Source: Burkholderia cepacia
GTDB taxonomy: Bacteria; Pseudomonadota; Gammaproteobacteria; Burkholderiales; Burkholderiaceae
Direction of reading: 5' to 3'
DNA length: 64,000 nucleotides
Assembly: GCF_029962485.1 (NCBI RefSeq)
Contig: NZ_CP073637.1
Location: 248,001 to 312,000, forward strand
The translations under genes and the position numbers were made by a program. Positions 1-56,323 of this stretch are shown here, in pieces. Under the pieces are notes generated by a model. It saw nothing but the letters and a program-made list of their open reading frames with translations. It ran no database searches and was not told the origin of the DNA. Positions within the stretch are counted from its first letter, which is position 1. The number at the start of each line of letters is the position of its first letter.

Positions 1-241
1 CGTCGGTCGTATTGCGGCCCAGCCGGTCCAGTTTGGTTACTACCAGTGTGTCGCCCTCGTCCAACCGTTCCAGCAACTTTGAGAAGCCGGGGCGCTCCGC
101 AGTGGGTACGCTGCCCGAAATCGTCTCCGCAATCGTATGGCGCGGCTGGATGGCAAACCCGGCCCCTTCGGCTTCGAGTAGCTGGTTGTCGGTGGTCTGC
201 TCGGCGGTGGACACGCGAGCGTAGAGGAATGTGCGGGACAT
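1..241 (-). CDS. Serine recombinase (resolvase/invertase family), N-terminal part, cut by window edge
   Basis: The minus strand reads [20 protein letters not shown] and runs off the left edge of the window after about 80 codons. This is the N-terminal catalytic domain of the resolvase/invertase serine recombinases: an R-V-S motif near residue 10 holds the nucleophilic serine, and a TKLDRLGRN motif holds conserved arginines. The family makes double-strand breaks at short inverted-repeat sites and joins serine to DNA. The C-terminal helix-turn-helix is outside the window, so completeness cannot be judged. The gene lies beside non-coding DNA with inverted repeats and a low-GC operon, which fits a mobile or accessory segment. 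Confidence 0.9.
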
Positions 242-377: not shown

Positions 378-412
378 TGTCTCCGTCGGCACAAGTTGTG
401 CCGACGGAGACA
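378..412. repeat. Near-perfect 35-bp palindrome (17-bp arms, 1-nt centre)
   Basis: The arm TGTCTCCGTCGGCACAA (378-394) is followed by one G and then its exact reverse complement (396-412). There is no adjacent T-run in either direction, so a plain intrinsic terminator is unlikely. It lies in the non-coding gap between the recombinase and the DUF262 operon. It could be a recombination crossover site, the joined ends of a lost transposon, or a protein-binding site. Confidence 0.75.
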
Positions 413-798
413 CGCAAGTACTAGCTGGCTACGAACGAGGGACTGCGCATGCTTCCCGAGACGAAGAAACGGACACCGCAGACCGCACCCTCGGTGGCAG
501 AATCAGTCGAAACCTGCAGGCGCGCAAGAGGCAAGTGGCGTAAGCTTAATAGCCTCTTGCATCCCCAATTTCGGATTGATTGGGCATCTAGTTGATAGAG
601 CCGGCCACGGGCTCAGCGGAGGCGGCGGCAAACTCGATATGCCCGCTGCGGGGTTGATGTGACCGTTGCAGCAACAGGAAGGATTCGGACAAATAGTGTG
701 TTGGCCCGGCGGTAAAATATCCTCACTCACTCGCAACACTTGCTTCTACATATCGGGCGAGAGTTCGCCGGACGTAGGGACGGATTTTGGAAGATCAA
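413..798. other. Non-coding gap upstream of the three-gene operon
   Basis: No convincing gene was found here; the short reading frames lack ribosome-binding sites and conserved content. A small palindrome GTTGCAGCAAC lies at 665-675, and a TAAAAT hexamer at 713-718 could be a -10 element about 80 bp upstream of the DUF262 start. I could not find a convincing -35 partner. Confidence 0.35.
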
Positions 799-2154
799 AT
801 GTCGACACTGCACGATACAGCGATAGATAAATTGGAACTTGATGGAGTAAGCGCCCGGCTTGTTCGGGCCATCAAGCAGCACGCGACCATCGATATCCAT
901 CAACTGAGCCTCATTGAGGGCCCGGACTTGGCCGGCGAAGTCGGCATACCAAGCTTCGACGAGATTCTGGATCGGCTGTTGCAAGCAGGCTGGATCGTGC
1001 GCAATGGCGACATGTTGAGTTTGAGTGAGAAGGGGGAAGTAAGCTTCGCTGATGCAACCACGGAAGCTTCTACCGAGGAAGAAGTTATAGGTCTCGACGA
1101 TGGACCGACGAAACCCTACGACGTAGCAAAACTCAAGGTCGAACAACGTACTCTGAGTGTTTTTCAGGCGCTTCGAAAGATCGAAAAAAAAGAGATCATA
1201 CTGAATCCCGATTTTCAGCGCGCGTTTGTATGGGATGCCGTAAGACAAAGCAGACTGATAGAATCAATTTTGATACGCATCCCTCTGCCAGCGTTTTATT
1301 TGGACGCAACGGATGCCGTGCAGTGGAATGTTGTTGATGGATTGCAGCGCCTCAGTACGCTTTATCGCTATTGCCGTGGCGTAAGCTTTCCTCTCACAGG
1401 TTTGGAATTTCTCGTTGAGCTCACAGGAAAAAAATTCTCAGAGCTTCCTCAGAAATATCAGGTCATGATTGAGGACGATACGCAGCTAATCTTCAATAAC
1501 CTGTTGCCCGGAACTCCAGCAAAAGCCAAATTTACGATTTTCTCGCGAGTGAATACTGGAGGAATGCAGCTGACTGCTCAAGAGATTCGGCATGCACTAA
1601 ATCAGGGGCCAATTACCAATTTGCTGGGGCGAATCGCATTGAGCGCCAAATTTTTGGAGGCGACAGATCGTGCAGTTGACTCCCGGCGAATGTCAGACCG
1701 CGAACTGATTTTGCGAACTTTGGCATTTTCGCAATTCGGCCTGGCGAAATATCCGGAGTTCGGCGATCTTGATGCTTTTTTGGTCGATGCTATGGAGACA
1801 TTTAATGAATTCTCCAAAGCGCAACTCGCTCAGGTTGAAGCAGAATTCTTCGAATCCTTGGGCAAGGTGAGAGCAATCTTTGGACGTTATGCCTTTCGGA
1901 AATTCTATGAGCGGGGCGGCCGGCGAAGCCCCCTCAATAAGGCCTTGTTTGAGGCATGGTTATCGAATGTTCGGGGATATTCGCACAATACATTGGTGGC
2001 AAACCGAGAAAAAATTATCGATCTGTTTGTGGATGCAATGAACAAGGATGGATTGTTCGTCAATTCCGTAACTTACGGGACAGGCAAAGTTAGCGCCGTC
2101 AGGACACGTTTCAATAAAATAAAAGGCATTGTTGAGGAGGCTCTCGGTGATTAA
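799..2154 (+). CDS. DUF262 (ParB/Srx-like) domain protein
   Basis: A 451-aa protein. Residues 1 to about 95 look like a helical, winged-helix-type N-terminal module. From about residue 110 it has the DUF262 signature: NPDFQRAFVWD near 136 and VVDGLQRLSTL near 178, where the DG-x-QR motif is the nucleotide-hydrolysis motif of this ParB/sulfiredoxin-like fold. DUF262 occurs in GmrSD type IV restriction and SspE. The DUF1524 HNH nuclease domain found in those is absent here, so DNA cleavage is not evident. ATG 799 is chosen because GGAAG lies 5 bp upstream; a TTG at 787 is in frame but less likely. The stop overlaps the next gene by 8 nt, indicating translational coupling. Confidence 0.85.
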   Translation: MSTLHDTAIDKLELDGVSARLVRAIKQHATIDIHQLSLIEGPDLAGEVGIPSFDEILDRLLQAGWIVRNGDMLSLSEKGEVSFADATTEASTEEEVIGLDDGPTKPYDVAKLKVEQRTLSVFQALRKIEKKEIILNPDFQRAFVWDAVRQSRLIESILIRIPLPAFYLDATDAVQWNVVDGLQRLSTLYRYCRGVSFPLTGLEFLVELTGKKFSELPQKYQVMIEDDTQLIFNNLLPGTPAKAKFTIFSRVNTGGMQLTAQEIRHALNQGPITNLLGRIALSAKFLEATDRAVDSRRMSDRELILRTLAFSQFGLAKYPEFGDLDAFLVDAMETFNEFSKAQLAQVEAEFFESLGKVRAIFGRYAFRKFYERGGRRSPLNKALFEAWLSNVRGYSHNTLVANREKIIDLFVDAMNKDGLFVNSVTYGTGKVSAVRTRFNKIKGIVEEALGD

Positions 2155-3295
2155 CGAAGCTACTGTCAAAGGCTTTAAAAGTCTTAAAGATGTAGAATTC
2201 GATCTGGGAAATTTGAATATACTTGTCGGCGCGAACGCTAGCGGAAAATCAAGTTTTCTACAAGTGCTGCTATTGCTTCGTCAGTCGAGTACTGCGGAAG
2301 GTGTTGTGCCATCGCTGCAACTCTCTGGCGATCTTTTTGAGGGAGGTACGGCTACTGATGTCTTACATCCCGAGGCTGAGCGGAAAATTGAGGTCGTCAT
2401 TCGCGAAGGACGAGATGCCACGAGCTTCGTATTTGAGGCGCTACGTAGCGACGCCGACCCGAACCCGCGAGTACTATCGTGCGGGGCGACTTCTGACTCA
2501 AAGCTTCCCAAAGGGTTATATCAACGTGGGGGCGCATTTTGCTACCTAAATGCGGAGCGTTTAGGGCCTCGTGTCAGCTATCCACTTCCTCCTGCAGAAG
2601 CCAAACTTAGCGGGTTTTTGGGGAAGCACGGAGAATTCACAACGGCCTTTCTCGCACGTGCTCATGCTTCGAACCTTACAGTCCCAGGCTGGGACAGTCA
2701 GCTAAATGCGTTGGCTGCTGTTGGAGAGGGAATCGACCAAGCTGATATATCATTTGCACAGAGTCAAATGAGTGCGGTAGCGAACATTCTGCTTGCATGG
2801 GTTATTCCTGGTGCATCCTTCGATGCGAGTGAGCATTCCGCTATGGATATGGCCCAGTTGGGATTTACGCGTGATGCAAAGGGCACGAAAAGCAGCGTGC
2901 GCCCAACTCATATCGGTTTCGGTCTTTCGTATACGCTTCCAATTATCACTGGACTTCTTGCAACCCCGAAGTCGGGAATGTGTATTGTGGAAAATCCAGA
3001 GGCTCATTTACATCCATTTAGCCAATCCCGTATGGGCTCGCTCCTAGCGGCTGCCGCTGGGAATGGCATACAGCTGTTTGTTGAGACTCACAGTGACCAT
3101 GTCGTAAATGGAGTCCGACTTGCGGTTAAGAACAAATTAATCGACGCCTCCGATGTTCGCATATTTTTCTTTGAAAAGGACCCTGATTCTGATAGCACGT
3201 CATTGACAACACTTAAGGTCGACCAGGATGGTGCTCTAAGCGATTGGCCCACAGGTTTTTTTGATCAAATTGAGATTGACCTGTCGAGGCTATGA
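2147..3295 (+). CDS. AAA/ABC-type ATPase with C-terminal DUF3696-like segment
   Basis: A 382-aa protein starting at GTG 2147, with a strong GAGGAGG Shine-Dalgarno 6 bp upstream. The Walker A motif is GANASGKSS (residues 28-36) and the Walker B-like motif is MCIVENPEAHLHP near 278. VETHSDHVVNG near 312 is the SMC/RecF/OLD-type switch histidine region. The C-terminus ends in an acidic tract followed by WPTGFFDQ, typical of the DUF3696 tail. No nuclease (TOPRIM) domain is seen, unlike OLD proteins. It overlaps both neighbours (8 nt and 4 nt), so it should be made stoichiometrically with them. This ATPase type commonly powers defence complexes; its role here is inferred. Confidence 0.85.
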   Translation: MINEATVKGFKSLKDVEFDLGNLNILVGANASGKSSFLQVLLLLRQSSTAEGVVPSLQLSGDLFEGGTATDVLHPEAERKIEVVIREGRDATSFVFEALRSDADPNPRVLSCGATSDSKLPKGLYQRGGAFCYLNAERLGPRVSYPLPPAEAKLSGFLGKHGEFTTAFLARAHASNLTVPGWDSQLNALAAVGEGIDQADISFAQSQMSAVANILLAWVIPGASFDASEHSAMDMAQLGFTRDAKGTKSSVRPTHIGFGLSYTLPIITGLLATPKSGMCIVENPEAHLHPFSQSRMGSLLAAAAGNGIQLFVETHSDHVVNGVRLAVKNKLIDASDVRIFFFEKDPDSDSTSLTTLKVDQDGALSDWPTGFFDQIEIDLSRL

Positions 3296-4065
3296 CAAAA
3301 AATAATACGATTTCCGTATGTATAGGCCCATTGTCAGCTAATCGGCACTGCAAAAGTAGAGAAGAAGTGCAGGCCGCTTTTAATGCGATGATTGGATGCA
3401 TTAATGCCTTGTTGCCAGCGCTAAGTGTTGGTGCTGCTCAGTTAATATATGACTGGACGACCGATGGTCAGAGCCTTCACTTAGACGCTGTTAATATGGC
3501 AGATCAGCTGAATTGGATTCATCCTCAACAAAGACGGCAATGGTATTTGTTTACGAAAAGCCGCGCGAGGAAGGCCTCAGCAAACCTAACTTCGGTGTCT
3601 GCATCTGCCGCAAATTCAAAAGACAGTATAACGGGCGAAATCTCCGAGGATTTGCTCGATCCGAAGAAGCACTGGCTAAGCTTTGGCATGACCGGCGTTT
3701 TTGACAGCGATGTTGTCACCATACAGCCGGATCAGGGAGCGAGCATCGATGTTCTAAACGCCTCAACCGCTGAGGGATGCGATAAATGGTTTCCGCGGTT
3801 TGAGGCTTCCCCTAAGCATGGGGGCAAAGAGTATGTTCGAGCATCCGGTGACACGGTGGCGGTGATGGACCTTGATGACGAACATGCGCAGCGGGCATTG
3901 CTAGTGTCGATCGAGGATGGGAAAAATCGTTACGCGACCGTAAAAGGCCGCTTCTACCGATTTGTTCCCACTCGGCCGGACAGTGCTCCCCCGCTCTACC
4001 ACGGGTTCCAAGTAAGCGAAAAGGAGGTACCCGCCGAAATCTTGAAATTGTTGACGCCGAAGTAA
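3292..4065 (+). CDS. Hypothetical protein, third gene of the DUF262-AAA operon
   Basis: A 257-aa protein whose ATG overlaps the ATPase stop (ATGA), so it is clearly the same operon. I do not recognise the family. There is no signal peptide or membrane segment. The middle (about residues 95-125) is Ser/Ala-rich and looks like a linker; the C-terminal half has a DTVAVMDLDDEHAQRALLV stretch and several aromatic motifs (WLSFGMTGVF, RFYRFVPTRP). Low GC like its two partners suggests joint acquisition. It could be the effector or sensor of the set, but nothing in the sequence decides this. Confidence 0.75.
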   Translation: MTKNNTISVCIGPLSANRHCKSREEVQAAFNAMIGCINALLPALSVGAAQLIYDWTTDGQSLHLDAVNMADQLNWIHPQQRRQWYLFTKSRARKASANLTSVSASAANSKDSITGEISEDLLDPKKHWLSFGMTGVFDSDVVTIQPDQGASIDVLNASTAEGCDKWFPRFEASPKHGGKEYVRASGDTVAVMDLDDEHAQRALLVSIEDGKNRYATVKGRFYRFVPTRPDSAPPLYHGFQVSEKEVPAEILKLLTPK

Positions 4066-4244: not shown

Positions 4245-4324
4245 GCCGGCTGGTGTGTGGCTGGCCTTTATATGACGGGACGTTGCTGGCTTTGTTTGAT
4301 AGTCCTCCGCCCAACGGAATTCGA

Positions 4325-4839: not shown

Positions 4840-6237
4840 TCACCCCCGCCCGAAACTCGGCCGCTTCGGATCGTACGTCCACCCCGGCACCAGGTACCGC
4901 ATCGCGACCGCGTCATCGCGCGCGGTGCCGCCCACCTCTTTGTACAGCGCATGCGCGGCTTCGACCTGCGCCATGTCGATCTCGATCCCGAGCCCCGGCC
5001 GCTCCGGCACGGCTACCTTGCCGCCGACGATCTCGAGCGGTTCGCGCGTGAGCCGCGCATCGCCTTCCTGCCAGATCCAGTGCGTATCGATCGCGGTGAT
5101 CGTGCCGGGCGCGGCTGCCGCCGCATGTGTGAACATCGCGAGCGACACGTCGAAGTGGTTGTTCGAGTGCGAACCCCACGTGAGCCCCCAGTCGCGACAC
5201 AGCTGCGCGAGCCGCACCGAGCCCTGCATCGTCCAGAAATGCGGGTCGGCCAGCGGGATGTCGACCGCCTGCAGTCGCACCGCGTGATCCATCTGCCGCC
5301 AGTCGGTCGCGATCATGTTGGTCGCGGTCGGGATCCCCGTTGCGCGGCGGAATTCGGCCATGACTTCGCGGCCCGAATAGCCGCCTTCCGGCCCGCACGG
5401 ATCTTCCGCATACGCGAGCAGGTGGCCTTGCCCGTGGCACAGCGCGACGGCCTCGTCGAGCGACCACGCGCCGTTCGGATCGAGCGTCGTGCGCGAATCG
5501 GGGAAGCGCGCCTTGATCGCCGCGATCGCTTCCATCTCGTCGGCGCCGGCCATCACGCCACCCTTCAGCTTGAAATCGGCGAAACCGTAGCGCTCGACCG
5601 CGGCTTCGGCCTGCCGCGCGATCGCGGCCGGCGTGAGCGCTTCCTCGTTGCGCAGCCGGAACCACGGGGAGCGCGCCTGCGCCTCGTCGCGATACGGCAG
5701 GTCGGTGCGGCCGCGATCGCCGATATAGAACAGATAAGCGAGCATCGGCACCGCGTCGCGCTGCTGGCCTTCGCCGAGCAGTGCCGCGACCGGCACGTCG
5801 AGATGCTGGCCGAGCAGGTCGAGCAGCGCGGCCTCGATTGCCGTGATCACGTTGTCGAGCCGCAGGTTGATCTCGTGCGGCTGGCGCAGCACCGCTGCCT
5901 CGCCGGCCGACGTCACCTCGTGCCGGATCGTGCGGCCCGCGCCCGCGCCCGCACCGGACAGCGCCGCGCGCACCGCGTTGAGCGTCGCCTGGTAGCGCCC
6001 GATCGACTGGCCGACCACGAGATCCGTCATGCGCTCGAGCGCCAGGCGAATGCCTTCGCCGCCCGGCACTTCGCCGACGCCCGTATGCCCGCTGCTGTCG
6101 TCGAGGATCACGAGGTTGCGCGTGAAGTACGGCGCATGCGCGCCGCACAGATTGAGCAGCATGCTGTCGCGGCCGGCGACGGGAATCACCTGCATGCGCG
6201 TGACGCGCGGCGTGCCGGCACGGCTGGGTTCGGACAT
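4840..6237 (-). CDS. gudD: Glucarate dehydratase (enolase superfamily)
   Basis: A 465-aa protein, normal length for GudD. It dehydrates D-glucarate (and often L-idarate) to 5-keto-4-deoxy-D-glucarate. Enolase-superfamily signatures are present: [10 protein letters not shown] holds the catalytic Lys of the KxK-type motif, LDPNGAWSL and [11 protein letters not shown] hold metal-binding acids, and [15 protein letters not shown] matches the catalytic His region of glucarate dehydratases. ATG 6237 has AGGAGCG upstream. It lies 62 bp downstream of the gudP transporter gene on the same strand, which strongly supports a glucarate operon. Confidence 0.93.
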
Positions 6238-6299
6238 CGGTTCGCTCCTGGTTCCGGTGGCGCGCGGGCCGCCGGACGTGCCGGCGCGGCCCGCGCCGT

Positions 6300-7640
6300 T
6301 CATTGAAGCTCGACGCGGCGGATCTCGCCGACGACGAACAGGTAGCAGATCACGGCGACGAGCGCGTGCGCGACGACGTAGACGAGCGCGCCGTTGAACG
6401 AGCCGCTGCGGTCGACGATATAGCCGATCGCGATTGGCGTCGTGATGCTGGAGAGGTTGCCGCACGTGTTGAGCAGCGCGCCGCTCAGCCCCGCGATCTG
6501 GCGCGGCGCGGTGTCGGCGTTGACGGCCCAGCCGAGCGCGCCGAGCCCCTTGCCGAAGAACGACAGCGCCATGAACAGCACGACGAGCACGTGCGAATCG
6601 GTGTAGTTGCAGACGATCATCGACATCGACAGCAACATGCCGAACACGATCGGCACCTTGCGCGCGACCGACAGCGAGCGGCCCTGCTTGAGCAGCGCAT
6701 CGGACACGACGCCACCGAGAATCCCCCCGAGGAACCCGCACACGGCCGGGATCGACGCAACGAGCCCCGCGTTCAGGATCGACATCCCGCGCGCCTGCAC
6801 GAGATAGACGGGAAACCACGTGATGAAGAAATAGGTGAGCGCGTTGATGCAGTACTGCGCGACGTACACGCCGACCAGCATCCGGTTTCTCAGCAGTGCC
6901 TTGACGTGGCGCATCGACGGGCCGCCGTCGCGCCCGCCCGTCGCCTGGTCGATGTTGACGAGCGCGCCGCCTTCGGCGAGGTAGTCGAGTTCCGCGCGGT
7001 TGATGTTCGGGTGGTCCTTCGGGTCGTACATCGTGCGGTTCCACACCAGGACGAACGCGAAGCCGAGCACGCCCATCACCGCAAACACCGACTGCCAGCC
7101 GAACGCGTGCACGAGCCAGCCCATCAGCGGCGCGAACACGACGGTCGCCGCGTACTGCGCGGCATTGAAGATCGCCGACGCGGTGCCGCGTTCGGCGGCC
7201 GGGAACCACGCGGACACGATCCGGCTGTTGGCCGGGAACGACGGCGCCTCGGCCGCGCCGACCAGGAAGCGCAGCCCGAACAGCAGCGCGAACGCGGCCG
7301 CGCCGCCGAAGAAGCCGATTCCGCCCTGCAGCAACGTGAACAGCGACCAGAAGAAGATGCTGAATGCGTAGACGATGCGCGACCCGTAACGGTCGAGCAG
7401 CCAGCCGCCCGGCAGTTGCGCGATCACGTACGACCAGCCGAACGCGGAGAAGATGAAGCCGATCTGTACGTGGCTCAGGTGCAGCGCGCGGGCGAGGCTC
7501 GGGCCCGCGATCGCGATCGCCGCGCGATCCGCGTAGTTGATCGTCGTGACCGCGAACAGGACGGTCAGCACGAGCCAGCGCACGCGCGTGCGCCGGGCCG
7601 TTGCCGACGCGGACGCCGGCAGCGCGTGAAGCGGATTCAT
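6300..7640 (-). CDS. gudP: MFS transporter, D-glucarate/hexuronate type (GudP-like)
   Basis: A 446-aa protein with about 12 membrane segments. It carries the ACS-family marker [15 protein letters not shown] in the first helix region and [14 protein letters not shown] at the first cytoplasmic loop. ATG 7640 is chosen because GGAGGAG lies 9 bp upstream. Adjacency to gudD identifies the likely substrate as glucarate or galactarate; the sequence alone would only say anion:cation MFS symporter. It is the first gene of a gudP-gudD unit. Confidence 0.88.
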
Positions 7641-7813
7641 GACTTGTCTCCTCCGAAGGGCGGAAGGTGCCGCCGTGCGGCCGGCGCGTCGGTGCGCGCG
7701 TGATGTGTGCGGTTGCCGCCGGCCGGAAGCCGGGCCCCGGACGCCGTTACGGGCAGGGCGTCCGGACCATTCTGTCATGTCGAAATTTGCGCTTTCATGC
7801 CAATTGCTGACTT

Positions 7814-7838
7814 GATCGATTCAGCATTTGAATCGATC
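7814..7838. promoter_or_regulatory. Inverted repeat upstream of gudP, candidate operator
   Basis: The 10-bp perfect arms GATCGATTCA (7814-7823) and TGAATCGATC (7829-7838) have a 5-nt spacer. They lie about 175 bp upstream of gudP and just past the stop of the LysR gene. With no T-run, an operator for the glucarate operon is more likely than a terminator. Confidence 0.5.
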
Positions 7839-7852
7839 GGCGCCGCGATCGG

Positions 7853-8776
7853 TCACGCGCTCGCGTCGTCCGCGCCGGTGCCGTGATGGTGCGCCACGTG
7901 CTGCGCGAGAAACTCGACGGCGACGCGCACGCCGGGCAACTGGCCGCGCCGGTGCGGCATCAGCAGTGTCGTCGTGACGGTGCCCGCGCGCCAGCCGGGC
8001 AGCACGCGCACGAGCGCGCCGGACGCGAGCGCGGCGCCGGCGATCCAGTCGGGCAGGCATGCGATGCCGAGGCCGGCTGTCGCCGCTTGCAGCAGCAACG
8101 TCGATTCGTCGGCCTGCAGGCGGATGCGCGGCGCCACGTCGACGGTGTCGTCGCCACGCTGCAGCCGCCACGGCTGCTGGCTCGGGTGCAGGCCGTCGTG
8201 CCGCGCGAGATCGGCGGGTTCGTCCGGGATGTCGGCGCGTGCGAGATAGGCCGGCGACGCCACGGCGATGATGGGCGACGTCGCGAGCGGCCGCTGCACG
8301 AGCGCGGAATCGGGCAGCGGCGCGAAATGGCTGCGCACCGCGATGTCGAAGCCTTCCTGAGCGATGTCGACGAGACGGTCGCTCGCATGCACCTGCAGCA
8401 GCAGCTTCGGATGCGCGATGGCCAGCGCCGGCAGGCAGGGCGCGAGGATGTGCTGCGCGACCGGCACCGAGCTCGTGATCCGCACGACGCCGGCCGGTTC
8501 GGCGGCCTGCCGCAGTACCGCGTCGCGCGCGCTGTCGGCCTCGATCACGGCCGCGCGTGCGTGCTCGAAGAATTCGGTGCCGACCGGCGTCAGCCGGAAG
8601 CTGCGCGACGTGCGATGCACGAGCCGCGCGCCGAGCGTGCGCTCGAGCTCGGCCACGCGTTTGCTGACCGTCGATTTCGGCAGGCCGAGCCGGCGCGCGG
8701 CCGCCGACATGCTGCCCGCATCGACGGCCTGCACGAACAGATAGAGATCGTTCAGGTTCACTTTCAGCGTCCACAT
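7853..8776 (-). CDS. LysR-family transcriptional regulator
   Basis: A 307-aa protein from ATG 8776. The N-terminal winged HTH is visible (LNDLYLFVQAVDAGSMSAAA, then LPKSTVSKRVAELERTLGARL), followed by a LysR substrate-binding domain (VRITSSVPVAQHILAP ... ATAGLGIACLPDWIAG). A GTG five codons downstream would give the classic MNLNDLYLFV start and is a real alternative. It is divergent from a GST gene 91 bp away and upstream of gudP on the same strand, so it may control either. The inverted repeat at 7814 suggests the gud operon; divergence suggests the GST. Confidence 0.88.
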   Translation of the reverse strand: MWTLKVNLNDLYLFVQAVDAGSMSAAARRLGLPKSTVSKRVAELERTLGARLVHRTSRSFRLTPVGTEFFEHARAAVIEADSARDAVLRQAAEPAGVVRITSSVPVAQHILAPCLPALAIAHPKLLLQVHASDRLVDIAQEGFDIAVRSHFAPLPDSALVQRPLATSPIIAVASPAYLARADIPDEPADLARHDGLHPSQQPWRLQRGDDTVDVAPRIRLQADESTLLLQAATAGLGIACLPDWIAGAALASGALVRVLPGWRAGTVTTTLLMPHRRGQLPGVRVAVEFLAQHVAHHHGTGADDASA

Positions 8777-8867
8777 GAAGAAACGACGGGTTTCAATTTT
8801 AGCGGCTACTGCGCCATCGTTCGCCATGGGAGCATGACTGCTCGTTCAACTTCTGCGGAATCTCCCG

Positions 8868-9599
8868 ATGTCCTCGATCCTTCTCTACGGCATTCCCGCC
8901 GGCTGCTCGTTCGGCTCGATCGTCGCGCTTGAATGGGCCGGCCGCCCGTACCGGCTGTCGCGCATCGCGATGCCGAGCGTCGCGACGAGCGACGCGTATC
9001 TCGCGCTGAACCCGGTCGCCGAGACGCCGGCATTCGTGACCGCGAACGGCGAGGTGCTGACCGAAAGCCTCGCGATCCTCGGTCACATCGGCGCGCAGGC
9101 GCTCGACACCGGCCTCGCGTTTCGCCAGGGCAGCGCGGATTTCGACCGGCTGAACCGGATGCTCGCGTGGCTGAACACGACGTTCTTCAACGCGTTCGGC
9201 GCGCTCTGGTACGTGTACGAACACGACACCGAGGGCGCCGAGAAAGCGGCGCTGCAGGCTTATGGCCGCGGCAAGGTGCTGAAGGCGCACCGGCAGCTCG
9301 AGGCGCTGCTCGAGCGCGGTGACGGCCCGTGGCTGCTGGGTGCGCGGCGCACGCTGGCCGACGCGTACTTCTCCGGGATCGCTCGGTGGGCCGACTACCA
9401 CGCGGTATTCGAGCGCGACGCGTTCCCGCGCATCGCCGCGCTGCGTGCGCGGCTTGCCGACGATGCGGGCGTGCAGTTCGCGCACGCGATCGAGGAAAAC
9501 CTGCCGCCGCCGGCGTCGCTGGCGTTCGAAGGGCATGTGTCGCTCGACGACGCGCTGGCAAGCGCACGCGGCATCGCGGCGCCGGCCCGGGCGGCCTGA
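8868..9599 (+). CDS. Glutathione S-transferase family protein
   Basis: A 243-aa protein. The N-terminal thioredoxin-like half begins LLYGIPAGCSFGSIVALEW, and LNPVAETPAFVTANGEVLTES contains the conserved cis-Pro and the E-S pair that binds the gamma-glutamyl group. The C-terminal helical domain includes GRRTLADAYFSG-like spacing (GARRTLADAYFSG), the N-capping-box region of GSTs. It is somewhat longer at the C-terminus than a typical 200-220-aa GST. It is divergent from the LysR gene, a common arrangement for regulated detoxification genes. The substrate is unknown. Confidence 0.85.
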   Translation: MSSILLYGIPAGCSFGSIVALEWAGRPYRLSRIAMPSVATSDAYLALNPVAETPAFVTANGEVLTESLAILGHIGAQALDTGLAFRQGSADFDRLNRMLAWLNTTFFNAFGALWYVYEHDTEGAEKAALQAYGRGKVLKAHRQLEALLERGDGPWLLGARRTLADAYFSGIARWADYHAVFERDAFPRIAALRARLADDAGVQFAHAIEENLPPPASLAFEGHVSLDDALASARGIAAPARAA

Positions 9600-9722: not shown

Positions 9723-10337
9723 ATGACAACCTCCACGCTCCTTCCTTCGTACACGGCCTTCGACGGCCACCGGCGGCTTGCGTCGGGCGCGCTCGCAACG
9801 GTCGCGCTCGCGGTCCGGCAGGCAGCTGGCGACGCGATGCCCGGCGCGATCCTGATCTTCGATGACGCGACGGGCCGCTCGATCGACCTCGACCTGCGCG
9901 GCACCGAGGACGACATCCGCGCGCGCTATGCGCCGCCGTCAGGCGCCACGTCCGGCGCGGCAGGCGCCGGCGAACAGCGCGGCCGCGGCCGGCCGAAGCT
10001 CGGCGTCGTGTCGCGTGAAGTCACGCTGCTGCCGCGTCACTGGGAATGGCTCGGCGCGCAGCCGGGCGGCGCGTCGGTGGCGCTGCGCAAGCTCGTCGAG
10101 GACGCGCGGCGCACGCATGCGGCGGCCGACCGGCACCGCGACGCGCAAACCCGCGCCTACCACTTCATGTCGGCGATGGCGGGCGACCTGCCCGGTTTCG
10201 AGGAAGCCGCGCGGGCGCTGTATGCGAACGATCCGGCTCGGCTCGCCGAGCTGGCCGCCGGCTGGCCGGACGACGTGCGCGACCATGCGCTCGCCCTGGC
10301 GCGCGGCGACCTGCCGCCGTCCGCCGAAGACTGTTGA
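9723..10337 (+). CDS. DUF2239 family protein
   Basis: About 204 aa from ATG 9723 (GTG 9714 is an alternative). The N-terminal half carries the family opening YTAFDGHRRLASG and FDDATGRSIDLDLRG. The middle has an AT-hook-like basic patch (GRGRPKLGV) followed by VSREVTLLPRHWEWL and a helical C-terminus ending in repeated ARALYA/ELAAGWPDDVRDH segments. DUF2239 has no established function. The basic segment suggests nucleic-acid binding. No strong Shine-Dalgarno is visible. It is followed 15 bp later by the carotenoid-oxygenase gene, probably co-transcribed. Confidence 0.8.
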   Translation: MTTSTLLPSYTAFDGHRRLASGALATVALAVRQAAGDAMPGAILIFDDATGRSIDLDLRGTEDDIRARYAPPSGATSGAAGAGEQRGRGRPKLGVVSREVTLLPRHWEWLGAQPGGASVALRKLVEDARRTHAAADRHRDAQTRAYHFMSAMAGDLPGFEEAARALYANDPARLAELAAGWPDDVRDHALALARGDLPPSAEDC

Positions 10338-44935: not shown

Positions 44936-46201
44936 ATGTCATTCCGAAGCAGTTTCGCCGCGGCCATGTTGGGTGCGGCCGTTTTCGTGTCGCCGCTCGT
45001 GGCGTCGGCCGCGCCGGCCGGATGGGTTGCCGCGTGGGCAACCGCGCTGCAGCCGATTCCCGATCTTGCCGCGCCGCCGCCGCTTTACCGCGCGCCCGAC
45101 GTGGCCGGGCGGACCGTGCGCCAGATCGTGTATCCGACGGTGTCGGGGCGCGCCGCGCGGATTCGCGTCAGCAATGCCTACGGCCGCGCGCCGCTGGTCG
45201 TCGAGGCCGCGAGCCTCGCGCGTGCCGGTGAGGGCGCGGTGCTTGCCGGCGGCGCGGTCGTGCCGGTCCGGTTCGGCGGCAAGTCATCGGTGACGCTCGC
45301 GCCGGGCCAGGAGCTCGAAAGCGATCCGGCGGCCATCGACGTGATGGCCGCGCAGCCTTATGCGATCAGTCTCCAGATGGGGCCGAACCAGCGGATGACG
45401 GTCTGGCACCGCGTGTCGAACCAGTTCAACTATGTGTCCGTACCGGGCGACCACGTGAGCGATCCGGGCGCCGCCGCGTTCCGCACTCGCTTTACGCAAT
45501 ACGCATGGGTGTCCGAACTGGCTGTCGAAGCCGGTACCGCGCACGCCAGTGTCGCTGCGATCGGCGACTCGATCACCGACGGGCTGCGCTCCAGCGTGAA
45601 CCGGAACCGCCGCTGGCCCGACGCGCTCGCGCGCCGGCTGACGGCGTCGGGAGCCGATTCGGTCGGCGTCGTGAATCTGGGTATCAGCGGGAACCGGCTG
45701 CTCAGCGATTCCGCGTGCTACGGCACGTCGCTGGCGTCACGGTTCGAACGCGATGCGCTGTCGCGTGCGGGCGTGAAGGTGGCGGTCGTGCTGATCGGCA
45801 TCAACGACATCAACTTCGCGGCGATGCCGCCGCGCGCGGGGCTCGATTGCGACAACCCGCATACGCAGGTCACGGCCGCGTCGCTGATCGACGGTTATCG
45901 CCGGCTGATCGAGGCGGCGCACCGCCAGGGCGTGAAGGTATACGGCGCGACGCTCACGCCGGCTGCGTTGCCGCCCGGCCGCGAAGCGATCCGGCTCGAG
46001 GTGAACCGGTGGATCCGGAGTGGCGGCGGCTTCGACGGCGTGGTCGACTTCGACGCGGTGCTGCGCGATCCGGCGCGTCCGAGCGTGCTGCAGCGCCGAT
46101 ACGATAGCGGCGACGGTATTCACCCGAGCGACGCCGGCTATACGGCGATGGCCGACGCGGTGCCGGTTGAGCAGTTGCAGGCTGCGGCGAGTGGCAAGTG
46201 A
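44936..46201 (+). CDS. SGNH/GDSL-family secreted hydrolase
   Basis: About 421 aa from ATG 44936 (GAGGA upstream; ATG 44921 is also in frame but overlaps that site). Signal peptide [25 protein letters not shown]. Block I is AIGDSITDG with the nucleophilic Ser; GISGNR is the Gly block; LIGINDIN the Asn block; [10 protein letters not shown] holds the catalytic Asp-His. A 190-residue N-terminal beta-rich domain precedes block I. The likely role is a periplasmic esterase or deacetylase. Divergent from paaA. Confidence 0.88.
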
Positions 46202-46208
46202 TGCCTCT

Positions 46209-46310
46209 CTATATATAGAGGGAAGCGTTGCCGGCGGCGTGGAGGTCAGCGGCGTCAGGTCATCCGTCGAGCCCAAAGCTCTCGTGCGCGTCAGCGCACG
46301 AGGGCTTTTT
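46209..46310. terminator. Terminator of the SGNH gene, with an adjacent AT palindrome
   Basis: CTCTATATATAGAG near 46206-46219 is a perfect palindrome. Further on, stem CTCGTGCGC / GCGCACGAG (46281-46302) followed by GGCTTTTT is an intrinsic terminator shielding the rrn promoter region. Confidence 0.7.
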
Positions 46311-46491
46311 CAAACTTTTTTCACAAAGGGGCTTGCGGAGATCGGGGCAGATGCATAGAATCACGCCTCTTTCGCGCTAACGGAAACGCGGCGCGGGAGG
46401 AAGGGAAGCGGTGCTGTTGAGGCAGGTGGTACGGGCCTCGGCGGTGCAGGAAGTTGAGCCCCGCAGTCGCAACGATGTAGTAAAAAAGTTG

Positions 46492-46520
46492 TTGACGAAC
46501 TGCGAAACACGGTTCATAAT
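46492..46520 (+). promoter_or_regulatory. rrn operon promoter
   Basis: TTGACG (46492-46497), 17-bp spacer and CATAAT (46515-46520), preceded by an A-rich stretch (GTAAAAAAGTT) that could be an UP element. It lies about 245 bp upstream of 16S. Confidence 0.8.
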
Positions 46521-46579
46521 CTCGCTTCTCTGCTGCTGAAAACGCAGCGCTGCCGGGAAACACGAAGTTCCTCGCAGAT

Positions 46580-46589
46580 TGCTCTTTAA
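46580..46589 (+). promoter_or_regulatory. boxA antitermination element, rrn leader
   Basis: TGCTCTTTAA in the leader matches the boxA consensus that loads the NusB/NusE antitermination complex. Confidence 0.85.
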
Positions 46590-46765
46590 AAATTAACAGC
46601 CGATAAGTGTGGGCGCTTGATGGAAGCGAGCTGATCCTCGGATCAGATAGCGAAAGTATCAAGAGTCTCACACTAAAGTAAGTCAGGTTTATGAAGCAAT
46701 TCATATTCCTGTCAGCTTTGAGTGAGCGACCGGTTCTTAACTGAACCGAAAACAGTAACAGGTTT

Positions 46766-48298
<1,533 letters not shown>

Positions 48299-48360
48299 CC
48301 AGAGCTTCTCGCAAAGTTGAGCGCTCACGCTTATCGGCTGTAAATTAAAGACAGACTCAG

Positions 48361-48437
48361 GGGTCTGTAGCTCAGTCGGTTAGAGCACCGTCTTGATAAG
48401 GCGGGGGTCGTTGGTTCGAATCCAACCAGACCCACCA
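48361..48437 (+). tRNA. tRNA-Ile (GAT)
   Basis: 77 nt with encoded CCA. Acceptor stem GGGTCTG pairs with CAGACCC; anticodon GAT at 48395-48397; GGTTCGAATCC T-arm. Sits in the 16S-23S spacer as usual. Confidence 0.98.
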
Positions 48438-48474
48438 TTGTCTGGCGGTAACACCTGAGGAAATCTGTACTCAT

Positions 48475-48550
48475 GGGGGCATAGCTCAGCTGGGAGAGCA
48501 CCTGCTTTGCAAGCAGGGGGTCGTCGGTTCGATCCCGTCTGCCTCCACCA
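48475..48550 (+). tRNA. tRNA-Ala (TGC)
   Basis: 76 nt with encoded CCA. Acceptor GGGGGCA pairs with TGCCTCC; anticodon TGC at 48508-48510; GGTTCGATCCC T-arm. Confidence 0.98.
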
Positions 48551-48636
48551 ATCTTCAATGACAAGCGTTCGACTTGGGTCGAATCTTTGTCATTGGCGAT
48601 TGAGCCAGTCAGAGGATATCAACAGATATCGGCTGT

Positions 48637-48646
48637 CGTTCTTTAA
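48637..48646 (+). promoter_or_regulatory. boxA element in the 16S-23S spacer
   Basis: CGTTCTTTAA precedes the 23S gene by about 190 bp, the usual place for the second rrn boxA. The rest of the spacer (48551-48831) shows only processing-stem sequence. Confidence 0.75.
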
Positions 48647-48831
48647 CAATCTGGAAGAAGTAAGTAATTTGGATAGCGGAAGCGTCTTGAGATGGACGTG
48701 AAAACTATCCGGGTTGTGATTGTATCGATGTATCTCAAGATGATTCGAACTCTATGTTTGACTCAATTGGAATACGGCACAACGCGAGAACTCAACCTGT
48801 AGCGACTGTCGATGAGACAGACTCGTTATAG

Positions 48832-51712
<2,881 letters not shown>

Positions 51713-51864
51713 ATAACAAGTCTGCCTTGTAGATCGGCGCCGTGCGCAAGCACTGGCCGCAAGATCCAAGCGACAAGTTGGATTCTCGTGTGTGATACAC
51801 ACAACTCAAAAATTACTGCTTCTTCCAAGATTGGTTGTGCTGCGAAGCAGCGCAACAACCCTCT

Positions 51865-51981
51865 TTGCCTGATGACCATAGCGAGTCGGTCCCACCCCTT
51901 CCCATCCCGAACAGGACCGTGAAACGACTCTACGCCGATGATAGTGCGGATTCCCGTGTGAAAGTAGGTAATCGTCAGGCT
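51865..51981 (+). rRNA. 5S ribosomal RNA
   Basis: TTGCCTGATGACCATAGCGA at the 5' end pairs with ATCGTCAGGC at the 3' end; the CCCATCCCGAACAGG block is typical. Ends are approximate to a few bases. Confidence 0.95.
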
Positions 51982-51992
51982 CCCTAAGCCAG

Positions 51993-52019
51993 AAACCCCC
52001 GCCCGAAAGGCGGGGGTTT
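51993..52019 (+). terminator. rrn operon terminator
   Basis: AAACCCCCGCC / GGCGGGGGTTT stem with loop CGAAA and a T-run, 12 bp past 5S. Confidence 0.92.
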
Positions 52020-52715
52020 TTGCATTTGAGCGGCAGAAATGCACGCGAGCTGGCCAGGCGCAATGCGGCCGGAACTGAGGCGTTGACGACGTCGATTCGG
52101 GCCGAGGTCGCATCCACGCAATCGGCGCAAATTCATTCCGACTACCCGAGTTGGCCAAGCACCAGCAACTGATGTTGCCGAGGCTGCTATCCTCCCGCCC
52201 CCTGTTCGAAGTGGCGGCGCTCTCAGTTGGCAGCCGATATGGTCGAGCGCTCGATCGACTATTCGCGGCAACTTCCTCTCGGCGGCTTCGCACAGCACCG
52301 CGGCACGGCGCAATACGTCCTGCCGTCCGGCAATCTGCCATCTCATCCCATCTACGCGCTTATTGAGCGCTTTTTCTGCGAAAACTGCGGCATTTACCAC
52401 TTTGCTACGAGATGCGCTTTGCGTTTCTCGCACCCCAGTTCGCCGCTCGTGTGAGCGGTGTACTCGGTTCGGAGTGTATGAACTCCGACGTTTCTTGTCG
52501 AAGGCGCCGAATGATCGTGGCGCAATGAAGCTACGCACCAGAATTGCGTCGGATAACGCGAAGTGGCGTTATCAAGCGCCGTTCTTCGCTTAATCCTTCA
52601 GATATCACGCGCAACCTGCTAATCCGAGGCGTTGGGCGCCCGGTTCGCAGCAAAGGCCAGGGATCCGGCCGCAGCGCCGGTTGCAACGTGTGTGTGCGTC
52701 GCCGGGCGGACGCCG
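52020..52715. other. Low-information region after rrn, no gene supported
   Basis: Only short reading frames on both strands, without ribosome-binding sites or recognisable domains. A weak hairpin lies near 52357-52378. The sequence may hold eroded coding remnants, but I could not name any. Confidence 0.4.
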
Positions 52716-53273
52716 TCAAAAATCAGTGCTGTTCCTTTTGGCGGGTATCGATTGGCCGTCTCGTAACACGTAGATTTCCTCGATGAGCGAATAGGCGGTA
52801 CCGCCGAAGCAATCTCTTCCTTCCTCGATCGGCGCAAAGCTTGCGTTGACGCCAATCGATTGCACCGAGCACTCCGTGTTTGGGTCGCTCGGTGCGGAAT
52901 CTTTGCCTGGCGGAAACCGGCGCATCGCGCTCCGGCCTTGATCCCGGGTCAGCACGAGCATCGCTGAGCAGTGCGTGTCGGACGTCAACGCCACGGAATT
53001 GCGGGGCAACTCTCCAGCATCTTCGGAGTTATGCGATGCGGCGAAAGCGCCCGCATCGAACTCCACGCAAATATTCGCATTCAGCTGAACGAGGCGTGCG
53101 TCGTACGGGCACGCAGGATGTCGGGTGTGCGCCGAGGATTCGCTGCGATAAGCCGACCGGATGCTGACGTTGTCCGGTTTGCACAACAGGGCGAGGCAAT
53201 GCGCGCTGCACTGCAGGACGCTTGCCAAGGTCGCGGAGCGGAGCTTGTGAGACAAGCCTGCGTGTGGAGGCAT
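52716..53273 (-). CDS. Hypothetical protein, Cys-rich
   Basis: A 185-aa protein from ATG 53273 (TTG 53288 is in frame and closer to the upstream stop). Codon third positions look GC-biased, as expected for a real gene here. About eight cysteines are spread along it (CSAHC, CPYD, ICVEF, THCSAM, ECSVQS, DCFGG), hinting at an exported disulfide protein, but no clear signal peptide is seen. No family recognised. It follows another hypothetical gene by about 20 bp. Confidence 0.45.
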   Translation of the reverse strand: MPPHAGLSHKLRSATLASVLQCSAHCLALLCKPDNVSIRSAYRSESSAHTRHPACPYDARLVQLNANICVEFDAGAFAASHNSEDAGELPRNSVALTSDTHCSAMLVLTRDQGRSAMRRFPPGKDSAPSDPNTECSVQSIGVNASFAPIEEGRDCFGGTAYSLIEEIYVLRDGQSIPAKRNSTDF

Positions 53274-53294
53274 GTCGTCGCCGAGCAAGGGCTG

Positions 53295-53666
53295 TTAGGC
53301 GTCCAGGCAGGCCGCACCGTCGGATTTGGTTGGCGGGGCGCTGTCGCCGGCGGCGATGAGGTAGGCGGACTCATCGTCGAGTAGCCATGCATAGGCTATC
53401 GCGTCCTGATCCATTGGCCGTACGGCGGACGAGCTGCTATGTGTCGAGCTCAGGCGTCCGGCATCGAGCGCCGGCTCCAGCCTGTCATATGCAGCGAGCG
53501 CTACACCTGCCCTGGGCCGTTTCACAGTGCGGCTGCCTTCCGAGGCTTGATGACGGATCTCTGCGATCGTGCTCGAGCGACACCAGGCGTCAGCCGGGTT
53601 GGTGGCATTTGCGGTCAAGGCCATGAAGGCAATCGCAAGAGCAAGCAGGTGCACAAAAAGTCGCAC
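53295..53666 (-). CDS. Hypothetical secreted protein
   Basis: A 123-aa protein from GTG 53666, chosen because it places MRLFVHLLALAIAFMALTANA as a signal peptide at the N-terminus; the frame stays open upstream to a TTG at 53795 with less convincing sequence. The mature part includes AIAYAWLLDDESAYLIAAGD. No family recognised and no good Shine-Dalgarno. Probably paired with the next gene. Confidence 0.45.
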   Translation of the reverse strand: MRLFVHLLALAIAFMALTANATNPADAWCRSSTIAEIRHQASEGSRTVKRPRAGVALAAYDRLEPALDAGRLSSTHSSSSAVRPMDQDAIAYAWLLDDESAYLIAAGDSAPPTKSDGAACLDA

Positions 53667-54162
53667 GGGAAGATGATCGGAGGCTTGGGATGGTATCGCG
53701 CCGGCCGCCGACGTCGCCAGGGGCGGGGGAAGTCTGTCGGCGTTTCGTGCGAACGCGCTGGAGCCGTTGCGAGGCCCAGGCGCCGGGAGGCGCAAATAAA
53801 CCCCGCTGGGTACGGCCGGCAGATCGAGCCAGGCAGTCGCGGAATGGATAGCGCGAAACCCCGATTTCCGGCAAACAGCCGGGTACTGAGGCCGTCGCGA
53901 ACGCCGCAGACGGGATCGACGAAGCCGCCCGGCATGAAATTTGCGGAAATTTGCGTCTACCCGCTTGGCATTGTGCGAAAGAGGTCGTATGATGGCGGTC
54001 TTTCGTTTTTAGCGCAGATGCAGATCGGCGCTAAGGGCGGAGTCTGACGAAGATGTGGCGCCGGTCGGCAGCATCTCGTGCTTGCCTTTAGCCGGGCAGG
54101 GGCGGGGGATCGGTGGTAAAGCAGGAGTCGGGAAGAGAGTGAAAATAATCTTCCGGATGTGC

Positions 54163-54191
54163 TTGACACGAGTGCGATGCACCCCCATAAT
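54163..54191 (+). promoter_or_regulatory. Promoter of the tRNA-tuf operon
   Basis: TTGACA (54163-54168), 17-bp spacer and CATAAT (54186-54191), an almost ideal sigma-70 promoter 15 bp before tRNA-Tyr. The gap 53667-54162 upstream of it shows no convincing gene. Confidence 0.9.
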
Positions 54192-54205
54192 CGTCAGTTC
54201 TCTAC

Positions 54206-54291
54206 GGAGGGGTGCCCGAGTGGCTAAAGGGGGCAGACTGTAAATCTGTTGGCTTACGCCTACGTTGGTTCGAATCCAACCTCCTCCACCA
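54206..54291 (+). tRNA. tRNA-Tyr (GTA)
   Basis: 86 nt with long variable arm and encoded CCA. Acceptor GGAGGGG pairs with CTCCTCC; anticodon GTA at 54240-54242; GGTTCGAATCC T-arm. Confidence 0.97.
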
Positions 54292-54334
54292 AGATATCAG
54301 CGCAGTGAGCGGTAAGGAATCGTTAGTGGCCCGT

Positions 54335-54408
54335 GCGGGTGTAGCTCAATGGTAGAGCAGAAGCCTTCCAAGCTTACGACGAGGGTTCGATTCCCTTCAC
54401 CCGCTCCA
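54335..54408 (+). tRNA. tRNA-Gly (TCC)
   Basis: 74 nt, acceptor GCGGGTG pairs with CACCCGC, anticodon TCC at 54367-54369, encoded CCA. Confidence 0.97.
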
Positions 54409-54432
54409 GACCGCTAAGTTGAAGCGTTAAGC

Positions 54433-54507
<75 letters not shown>

Positions 54508-54573
54508 GCAGTAAAAAGTCAGTGTCTTGTTTGCGCGCGGCGCAACCTGTGAAATTCCTTTTGGGAGTCGAAA

Positions 54574-55764
54574 ATGGCCAAGGGTAAATTCGAGCGGACC
54601 AAGCCGCACGTGAACGTTGGTACGATTGGTCACGTTGACCACGGCAAGACGACGCTGACGGCAGCGATCACGACGGTTCTGACGAAGAAGTTCGGCGGCG
54701 AAGCGAAGGCATACGACCAGATCGACGCGGCACCGGAAGAAAAGGCGCGCGGCATCACGATCAACACGGCACACGTCGAGTACGAAACGGCTAACCGCCA
54801 CTACGCACACGTTGACTGCCCGGGCCACGCTGACTATGTGAAGAACATGATCACGGGCGCAGCGCAGATGGACGGCGCGATCCTGGTTTGCTCGGCAGCT
54901 GACGGCCCGATGCCGCAGACGCGTGAGCACATCCTGCTGGCACGTCAGGTTGGCGTTCCGTACATCATCGTGTTCCTGAACAAGTGCGACATGGTGGACG
55001 ATGCTGAACTGCTCGAGCTGGTCGAGATGGAAGTTCGCGAACTCCTGTCGAAGTACGACTTCCCGGGCGACGACACGCCGATCGTGAAGGGTTCGGCGAA
55101 GCTGGCGCTGGAAGGCGACACGGGCGAGCTGGGCGAAGTGGCGATCATGAGCCTGGCCGACGCGCTGGACACGTACATCCCGACGCCGGAGCGTGCAGTT
55201 GACGGCGCGTTCCTGATGCCGGTGGAAGACGTGTTCTCGATCTCGGGCCGTGGTACGGTTGTGACGGGTCGTGTCGAGCGCGGCATCGTGAAGGTCGGCG
55301 AAGAAATCGAAATCGTCGGTATCAAGCCGACGGTGAAGACGACCTGCACGGGCGTTGAAATGTTCCGCAAGCTGCTGGACCAAGGTCAAGCAGGCGACAA
55401 CGTTGGTATCCTGCTGCGCGGCACGAAGCGTGAAGACGTTGAGCGTGGCCAGGTTCTGGCGAAGCCGGGTTCGATCACGCCGCACACGCACTTCACGGCT
55501 GAAGTGTACGTGCTGAGCAAGGACGAAGGCGGCCGTCACACGCCGTTCTTCAACAACTACCGTCCGCAGTTCTACTTCCGTACGACGGACGTGACGGGCT
55601 CGATCGAGCTGCCGAAGGACAAGGAAATGGTGATGCCGGGCGACAACGTGTCGATCACGGTGAAGCTGATCGCTCCGATCGCGATGGAAGAAGGTCTGCG
55701 CTTCGCAATCCGCGAAGGCGGCCGTACGGTCGGCGCCGGCGTCGTCGCCAAGATCATCGAGTAA
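54574..55764 (+). CDS. tuf: Elongation factor Tu
   Basis: A 396-aa GTPase that delivers aminoacyl-tRNA to the ribosome. G1 [11 protein letters not shown]2 [10 protein letters not shown]3 DCPGHADYV and G4 NKCD are present; domains II and III follow. TTGGGAG lies upstream of the ATG. Follows tRNA-Thr by 66 bp in the same transcript. Confidence 0.98.
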
Positions 55765-55789
55765 GCCAGTTATTCGTTGATCGACAGTT

Positions 55790-55815
55790 TTGGGGCTGGC
55801 AACAGCCGGCCCCAA
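55790..55815 (+). promoter_or_regulatory. Stem-loop between tuf and tRNA-Trp
   Basis: TTGGGGCTGGC / GCCGGCCCCAA with an AACA loop and no T-run after it. Probably a processing or partial-attenuation stem rather than a full terminator. Confidence 0.6.
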
Positions 55816-55823
55816 CATGGTTT

Positions 55824-55899
55824 AGGGGTATAGCTCAACTGGCAGAGCGTCGGTCTCCAAAACCGAAGGTTGGGGGTTCGATTCCCTCTGCCCCTGCCA
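55824..55899 (+). tRNA. tRNA-Trp (CCA)
   Basis: 76 nt, acceptor AGGGGTA pairs with TGCCCCT, anticodon CCA at 55857-55859, encoded CCA end. Located between tuf and secE as in many proteobacteria. Confidence 0.97.
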
Positions 55900-55942
55900 A
55901 AAAATAGCCACGTGTCCTACGTGGCATTTGTTTTAAGGTGTT

Positions 55943-56323
55943 ATGGCGAATCCATCCGTCGAAACTGTAAATACCTCCGGCGATAAGCTGATGCTGGCCC
56001 TGGGTGTATTGCTGGTGTTGGCCGGATTCGTGGGCTTCTTCTGGCTGGCCAATCAGCAGTGGTATGTCCGCGGTGCCGCGTTGGCGGTAGGTATCATCGC
56101 CGGCGTGGCCGTCGGGCTGATGTCCGCCCCTGGCAAGAGCCTCATCGCCTTTGCCAAGGATTCGTACAAGGAAGTCCGGAAGGTCGTTTGGCCCACCCGC
56201 AAGGAAGCAACGCAAACCACACTCGTCGTGTTCGGTTTCGTGCTCGTGATGGCGATTTTCCTCTGGTTGAGTGACAAATCGATCGAATGGGTGATTTTCT
56301 CGGCGATTCTGGGTTGGAAATGA
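55943..56323 (+). CDS. secE: Protein translocase subunit SecE
   Basis: A 126-aa protein with three membrane segments, as in E. coli-type Sec[38 protein letters not shown], and [43 protein letters not shown] is the essential cytoplasmic amphipathic motif. Stop is 1 nt from nusG. Confidence 0.96.

What the first reader, a model, noticed from the sequence alone, without database searches (positions are those of the whole stretch)
787..4065. Three-gene DUF262 - AAA(DUF3696) - unknown operon, candidate defence system
The genes overlap by 8 and 4 nt, share low GC against a high-GC chromosome, and sit beside a serine recombinase and inverted repeats. DUF262 and RecF/OLD-like ATPases both recur in defence islands. 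Here the DUF262 protein lacks the HNH (DUF1524) domain of GmrSD and SspE, the ATPase lacks a TOPRIM nuclease, and the third protein is unrecognised, so no visible nuclease completes a known system. The effector may be the third protein.
Basis: partly seen in the sequence, partly recalled or inferred. Interest (0 to 1): 0.85.

Follow-up and report, generated by a model that had tools for sequence, protein, structure and literature searches.

The report
Menshen defence operon with warfare toxin

Summary
In detail: three overlapping genes (802-2154, 2147-3295, 3292-4065, + strand), 48-50% GC against 69% in window 5000-9000. The reading "no known system" does not hold: PADLOC profiles name them NsnA (1.3e-120), NsnB (9.7e-96) and NsnC (7.8e-22), i.e. 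Menshen (name link recalled). The guess that the third protein is the effector is supported. NsnC residues ~166-257 are homologous to the C-terminal domain of CDI/filamentous-haemagglutinin, RHS and S-type-pyocin proteins, a domain without a Pfam, NCBIfam or PDB match in the searches made. Two CDI-type modules have an immunity-like gene next door; three Menshen loci with this domain show none. Other NsnC genes end differently, one in DUF4276 in the same genus. The operon sits in a ~19.8-kb island with a type I restriction system at a tRNA-Ala gene. Most likely NsnA/NsnB sense infection and release a toxin, perhaps an RNase. Activity is untested, structure prediction was off, and the key Menshen paper (gkaf357) could not be read.

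The parts
802..2154 (+). NsnA: DUF262/GmrSD_N protein (450 aa; a TTG start at 787 would add 5 aa). DGLQR motif at about 1336-1350. Residues 1 to ~93 lie in front of the PADLOC match and read like a winged helix (by eye; Pfam WH_AprA E 0.064, under its cut-off).
   Evidence: (NsnA 1.3e-120, residues 94-448); 53.9% identical to the Rhizobium NsnA over residues 20-454
2147..3295 (+). NsnB: OLD/RecF-like ATPase with C-terminal DUF3696 (about 3140-3292); Walker A GANASGKS at about 2228-2251.
   Evidence: (NsnB 9.7e-96)
3292..4065 (+). NsnC, 257 aa: N-terminal part (about residues 1-165) plus a C-terminal toxin-type domain.
   Evidence: (PDLC03888 7.8e-22)
3787..4062 (+). NsnC C-terminal domain (about residues 166-257), homologous to CDI/RHS/pyocin C-terminal domains. 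K175-H176 at 3814-3819 and H237 at 4000-4002 are invariant in both alignments looked at.
378..412 (.). Perfect 17-nt inverted repeat with a 1-nt centre between the recombinase-like gene and the operon; role unknown.
1..241 (-). 5' part of a 191-aa serine-recombinase-like gene that runs out of the window (L142:9666-10241).
   Evidence: assignment by eye
4303..4313 (.). Right end of the ~19.8-kb island: chromosomal sequence shared with relatives resumes here; the left end is the 3' end of tRNA-Ala(cgc), about G000:C1:232,476.

Best explanation
A Menshen (NsnABC) anti-phage operon carried by an integrated island. Shown: the three components by profile, their order and co-occurrence, and the homology of the NsnC C-terminus to interbacterial toxin C-termini. 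Inferred: NsnA (DUF262 NTPase) recognises an infection cue, NsnB (OLD-like ATPase) passes it on, and in the uninfected cell NsnA/NsnB keep NsnC silent; on infection the NsnC toxin domain is set free and cuts an essential nucleic acid, most likely RNA and without a metal ion, using the conserved Lys-His and the second His, so that the infected cell stops or dies. My odds by step: Menshen membership 0.95; toxin domain is the effector 0.85; held off by NsnA/NsnB and not by a separate immunity protein 0.65; ribonuclease 0.5.
Against: No experiment. The N-terminal 165 residues of this NsnC match other NsnC N-termini only weakly (hhalign probability 10.4%, at most 2.5%, 44.7%). The profile did not find the Pseudoxanthomonas NsnC. 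K211 and Y222 of the toxin set are changed in that protein, so not every NsnC of this type need be active. No PDB relative and no fold. Menshen as reviewed includes an OLD/TOPRIM-type nuclease component (PMC10952713, passages), which is not seen here.
Confidence: 0.8

Rival explanations
1. The shared domain is not the killing domain but a carrier, entry or binding module that toxins and NsnC both use; NsnC then only helps NsnA/NsnB bind a target.
For: The activity of the domain is not known from any library searched here.
Against: It is the C-terminal end in all 13 toxin proteins printed and in the CdiA-type ORF, and it occurs behind different delivery types (haemagglutinin/VENN, RHS, pyocin), as expected of the toxin domain itself. 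An immunity-like gene follows it in two modules.
Confidence: 0.1
2. Menshen operon as described, but the effector acts on DNA or on another target, not on RNA.
For: The chemistry is untested. D193 is at least 90% conserved in A4, so a metal-using site is not excluded. One paper lists Menshen under nuclease activity (PMC10855318, passage).
Against: No Asp is invariant in A2 or A7, whereas Lys-His and His are; D193 is Thr or Pro in some members. E245 is invariant in A2 but Gln or Lys in several toxins.
Confidence: 0.35
3. A new defence system unrelated to Menshen that shares DUF262 and an ATPase by chance.
For: NsnC has no Pfam or NCBIfam match and a divergent N-terminal part.
Against: All three match the PADLOC trio in order; the Rhizobium NsnC matches PDLC03888 at 1.5e-116 over its whole length.
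Confidence: 0.03

Closest known systems
Menshen (NsnABC)
   Same: Gene order, DUF262 NsnA, ATPase NsnB with DUF3696, NsnC matching PADLOC PDLC03888
   Different: Toxin-type NsnC C-terminus; no OLD/TOPRIM-type nuclease component such as the review describes
CDI/filamentous haemagglutinin (PT-VENN), RHS and S-type pyocin C-terminal toxin domains
   Same: The ~93-residue C-terminal domain
   Different: No delivery domains; inside a three-gene operon; no immunity-like gene found; NsnC lacks the last ~15-residue tail of the toxins
GmrSD / BrxU / SspE
   Same: DUF262 with DGxQR motif (family facts from PMC10952713 passages)
   Different: No DUF1524 HNH domain
Gabija and PARIS
   Same: OLD/RecF-like ATPase (weaker PADLOC matches GajA, AriA)
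   Different: No TOPRIM match; NsnA partner; toxin-type effector

Membership tests
Menshen (NsnABC) | NsnA, a DUF262 protein | tested here: met
   PADLOC NsnA 1.3e-120; GmrSD_N 9.7e-25
Menshen (NsnABC) | NsnB, ATPase | tested here: met
   PADLOC NsnB 9.7e-96
Menshen (NsnABC) | NsnC next to NsnB | tested here: met
   PDLC03888 7.8e-22, 4-nt overlap
Menshen (NsnABC) | OLD/TOPRIM-type nuclease component, as the review describes for Menshen | tested here: not met
   No such Pfam match. Probably a subtype feature and not a defining one: NsnC types differ between loci
Menshen (NsnABC) | Protection against phage | not testable with these tools
   Needs an experiment
CDI/RHS/pyocin C-terminal toxin domain (NsnC residues ~166-257) | Sequence homology of the domain, both directions | tested here: met
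CDI/RHS/pyocin C-terminal toxin domain (NsnC residues ~166-257) | Adjacent immunity gene | tested here: not met
   Two known immunity-like proteins: no tblastn match in window, L142, L141, L171 nor one of them in the own genome. An unrelated immunity gene is not excluded
CDI/RHS/pyocin C-terminal toxin domain (NsnC residues ~166-257) | Toxic activity | not testable with these tools
   Needs an experiment
GmrSD-type type IV restriction | DUF1524 HNH domain | tested here: not met
   No Pfam match up to E = 1 in the three proteins
Gabija / PARIS | TOPRIM nuclease with the ATPase | tested here: not met
   Pfam table of NsnB; GajA and AriA PADLOC matches are far weaker than NsnB and their best stretches cover ATPase parts

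The most novel reading that the evidence does not exclude
An uncatalogued toxin family of interbacterial warfare has been taken, without its immunity gene, into intracellular phage defence, where an NTPase/ATPase pair does the immunity protein's job of keeping it silent until infection; Menshen is then a chassis into which different killing domains are slotted.
Probability: 0.55. Interest if true: 0.6.

Novelty: new member of a known kind. Interest (0 to 1): 0.42.

Why it matters
It gives the unannotated NsnC of this Menshen subtype a concrete, testable role with candidate active-site residues (K175, H176, H237), ties an intracellular phage-defence gene to secreted antibacterial toxins by sequence, and shows different NsnC endings within one genus. 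It is also a warning for annotation: several PADLOC NsnC profiles match CDI, RHS and pyocin proteins, so an NsnC call without NsnA and NsnB beside it is unsafe.

Tried and rejected
Rejected: a wholly new system; GmrSD, Gabija or PARIS membership. The third match (G671, E 2e-4) lies in a 491-aa frame that reads like an ABC transporter (by eye) and is taken as chance.

No result: plasmids by DNA and by protein, phages by protein; no positive control was run for these. Viral contigs: 34 pattern stretches, 0 relatives. First genome-contig scan with NsnB: 20 stretches, 0 relatives. PDB by sequence: no significant match for NsnC, the toxin profiles or NsnA; NsnB matched one OLD nuclease chain over 38 residues (6p74, 2.2e-5). 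PHROGs: none for NsnC and three toxins; families of unknown function for NsnA and NsnB. Search with NsnC residues 1-165 alone: 3 proteins among 109 candidates, one of them the window's own. Promoter and terminator scans: numbers within those of shuffles. Structure prediction never ran, so no fold comparison was made.

[quoted passage not shown] The founding Menshen paper is not held. I therefore cannot say whether this toxin-type NsnC is in print. Searches showed no title or abstract that describes it; only lists were seen, capped at 20 of 153 papers and 30 of 36. That Nsn stands for Menshen is recalled; one search found no held paper with two of these names.

By eye, no profile run: serine recombinase, integrase, P4-like primase, L082 NsnC as phospholipase-D-like, L102's ORF as transposase-like, winged helix of NsnA.

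Full report
OBSERVATION. Three genes lie head to tail on the + strand: 802-2154 (or from TTG 787), 2147-3295 and 3292-4065, overlapping by 8 and 4 nt. GC is 48.3, 49.5 and 50.1% against 69.2% for window 5000-9000. Gene 1 matches GmrSD_N (DUF262), gene 2 AAA_21/AAA_15 and DUF3696, gene 3 nothing in Pfam or NCBIfam. A perfect 17-nt inverted repeat lies at 378-412. The description is accurate.

NAME. In PADLOC-DB the proteins match NsnA (1.3e-120), NsnB (9.7e-96) and NsnC (PDLC03888, 7.8e-22). From recall, Nsn names the Menshen system of Millman et al. 2022. A review (PMC10952713; passages seen) says that Menshen has a DUF262 gene without DUF1524, that mutation or deletion of DUF262 genes abolished resistance, and that a predicted OLD nuclease is part of it. 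The last point is not met here. 'New system' is therefore refuted; 'defence' and 'third protein is the effector' stand.

CONSERVATION. NsnA searches matched 27 of 300 genomes (order, E <= 1e-20), 47 of 398 (phylum, E <= 1e-50) and, with the protein, 14 of 65 (genus, E <= 1e-3), own genome included each time. These list 99 non-own places, of which 60 were fetched: 10 of 29, 47 of 55 and 3 of 15, mostly the strongest. NsnB lies beside NsnA in 31 of 60; the other 29 have an NsnA-like protein without NsnB by this profile, four of them with strong NsnA scores (L083, L100, L113, L118; E 1e-108 or lower). In 29 of the 31 a same-strand NsnC candidate follows; L107 has no such ORF (its NsnB ends 15 nt from the contig end) and L102 has a 128-aa transposase-like ORF. 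The DGxQR pattern is in 32 of 33 NsnA proteins and Walker A in 33 of 33 NsnB proteins (31 loci, window, L171).

THE THIRD PROTEIN. NsnC alone found 5 proteins among 499 candidates. Among 399 genomes of the order it hit three: its own, G158 of the same family at two places (3.3e-8 in a 278-aa frame, 7.3e-8 in a 2452-aa frame) and G671 (2e-4, taken as chance). The larger G158 protein has TPS-secretion and haemagglutinin-repeat domains and the match is its C-terminal end: a CdiA-type protein. A profile search with NsnC-like and the two G158 rows gave 48 proteins (8000 candidates scored, a cap): five NsnC-like, one of them the window's own, and 43 others. Of these 43, 16 are named haemagglutinin, VENN pre-toxin, RHS or S-type pyocin; most of the rest have no name or 'hypothetical'. 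In the 13 printed the domain is the C-terminal end.

IMMUNITY. Both CDI-type domains of G158 are followed by genes whose products are 37% identical, presumably immunity proteins. Neither has a tblastn match (E 1e-3) in the window, the 16 kb of L142, or the Pseudoxanthomonas (L141) and Rhizobium (L171) Menshen stretches, while both positive controls are found. One of them was sought in the own genome without a hit. An unrelated immunity gene is not excluded. NsnA and NsnB are the obvious candidates for keeping NsnC silent (inference).

SAME ARCHITECTURE ELSEWHERE. Both have NsnA and NsnB directly upstream. So toxin-type NsnC follows NsnAB in three of three loci seen with it.

OTHER ENDINGS. Of the 29 NsnC candidates in fetched stretches, one is toxin-type (L115); one (L091, same genus as the window) joins an NsnC N-terminus (hhalign 96.2%, E 2.7e-9 against ten others; PADLOC NsnC 1.9e-15 for residues 2-179) to DUF4276 (2e-21); one (L082) is a 247-aa PADLOC NsnC that I read as phospholipase-D-like; the other 26 fall with L091 into one BLAST-linked cluster, many ending in a H-x-K ... 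R-I-H-F-like pattern (by eye). The window's genus thus shows four Menshen loci with three NsnC endings (window; L089 and L090; L091). On the NsnB tree of 33 rows the toxin label needs two changes, forced by starred branches: window and Rhizobium pair at 100/100, Pseudoxanthomonas lies in a 95/94 clade of other types. Shuffled labels are as low in 32 of 500, so clustering as such is weak. Against a simple 'same front, new tail' story for the window protein: its first 165 residues match other NsnC fronts only weakly, so the whole gene may have been exchanged.

ISLAND. Upstream on the minus strand are a recombinase-like gene and type I restriction genes (PADLOC MTase_I 1.2e-200, Specificity_I 2.3e-55, REase_I 5.9e-160), then ORFs that I read as a P4-like primase and, on the plus strand, a tyrosine integrase beside tRNA-Ala(cgc). 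In G823 and G820 the sequences of the two flanks meet at the tRNA 3' end. The island is about 19.8 kb, from G000:C1 about 232,477 to about 252,311, and Menshen is its right-hand cargo.

MECHANISM. Shown: components, homology, context. Inferred: NsnA senses, NsnB transduces, NsnC kills. The front extension of NsnA, shared with Rhizobium (53.9% identity over residues 20-454) and missing in the 374-aa Pseudoxanthomonas NsnA, may set the cue. Invariant Lys-His and His without an invariant Asp favour a metal-independent ribonuclease; this is an argument from motifs, not a test.

NOVELTY. Menshen is known, and PADLOC already files this NsnC type, without a description. The link to interbacterial toxins may be in the Menshen polymorphism paper that I could not read. 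I file it as a new member of a known kind whose effector domain the general libraries searched here do not know.

Noticed in passing
PADLOC models PDLC03883, PDLC03888, PDLC03898, PDLC03901, PDLC03911, PDLC03913: These NsnC models match C-terminal domains of CDI, RHS and pyocin proteins, so NsnC calls alone may mislabel secreted toxins as Menshen.
   Followed up: partly
L166 (G772:C1:216290-227990): In G772 the two flanks are about 8 kb apart at the same tRNA-Ala site (left match ends at 1927, right begins at 10001), so another insert seems to occupy it: a possible integration hot spot.
   Followed up: no
L061:971-2238 (G158:C116): A second, orphan-like copy of the CDI-type toxin domain with its own immunity-like gene, 37% identical to that of the CdiA locus.
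   Followed up: partly
L171:89-2462 (Rhizobium mongolense): An HsdS-like ORF and two further ORFs (248 and 347 aa) precede the Rhizobium Menshen operon (by eye): Menshen next to type I restriction genes as in the window.
   Followed up: no
L141:10649-12046 (Pseudoxanthomonas): An MvaI/BcnI-type restriction endonuclease (PF15515, 1.2e-36) lies just downstream of that Menshen operon.
   Followed up: no
window 378-412: Perfect 17-nt inverted repeat with a 1-nt centre between the recombinase-like gene and NsnA; operator or recombination site possible.
   Followed up: no
window 46000-56000: Lower-GC stretch with six tRNA genes (Ile, Ala, Tyr, Gly, Thr, Trp); Ile-Ala spacing suggests a ribosomal RNA operon (not searched).
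   Followed up: no
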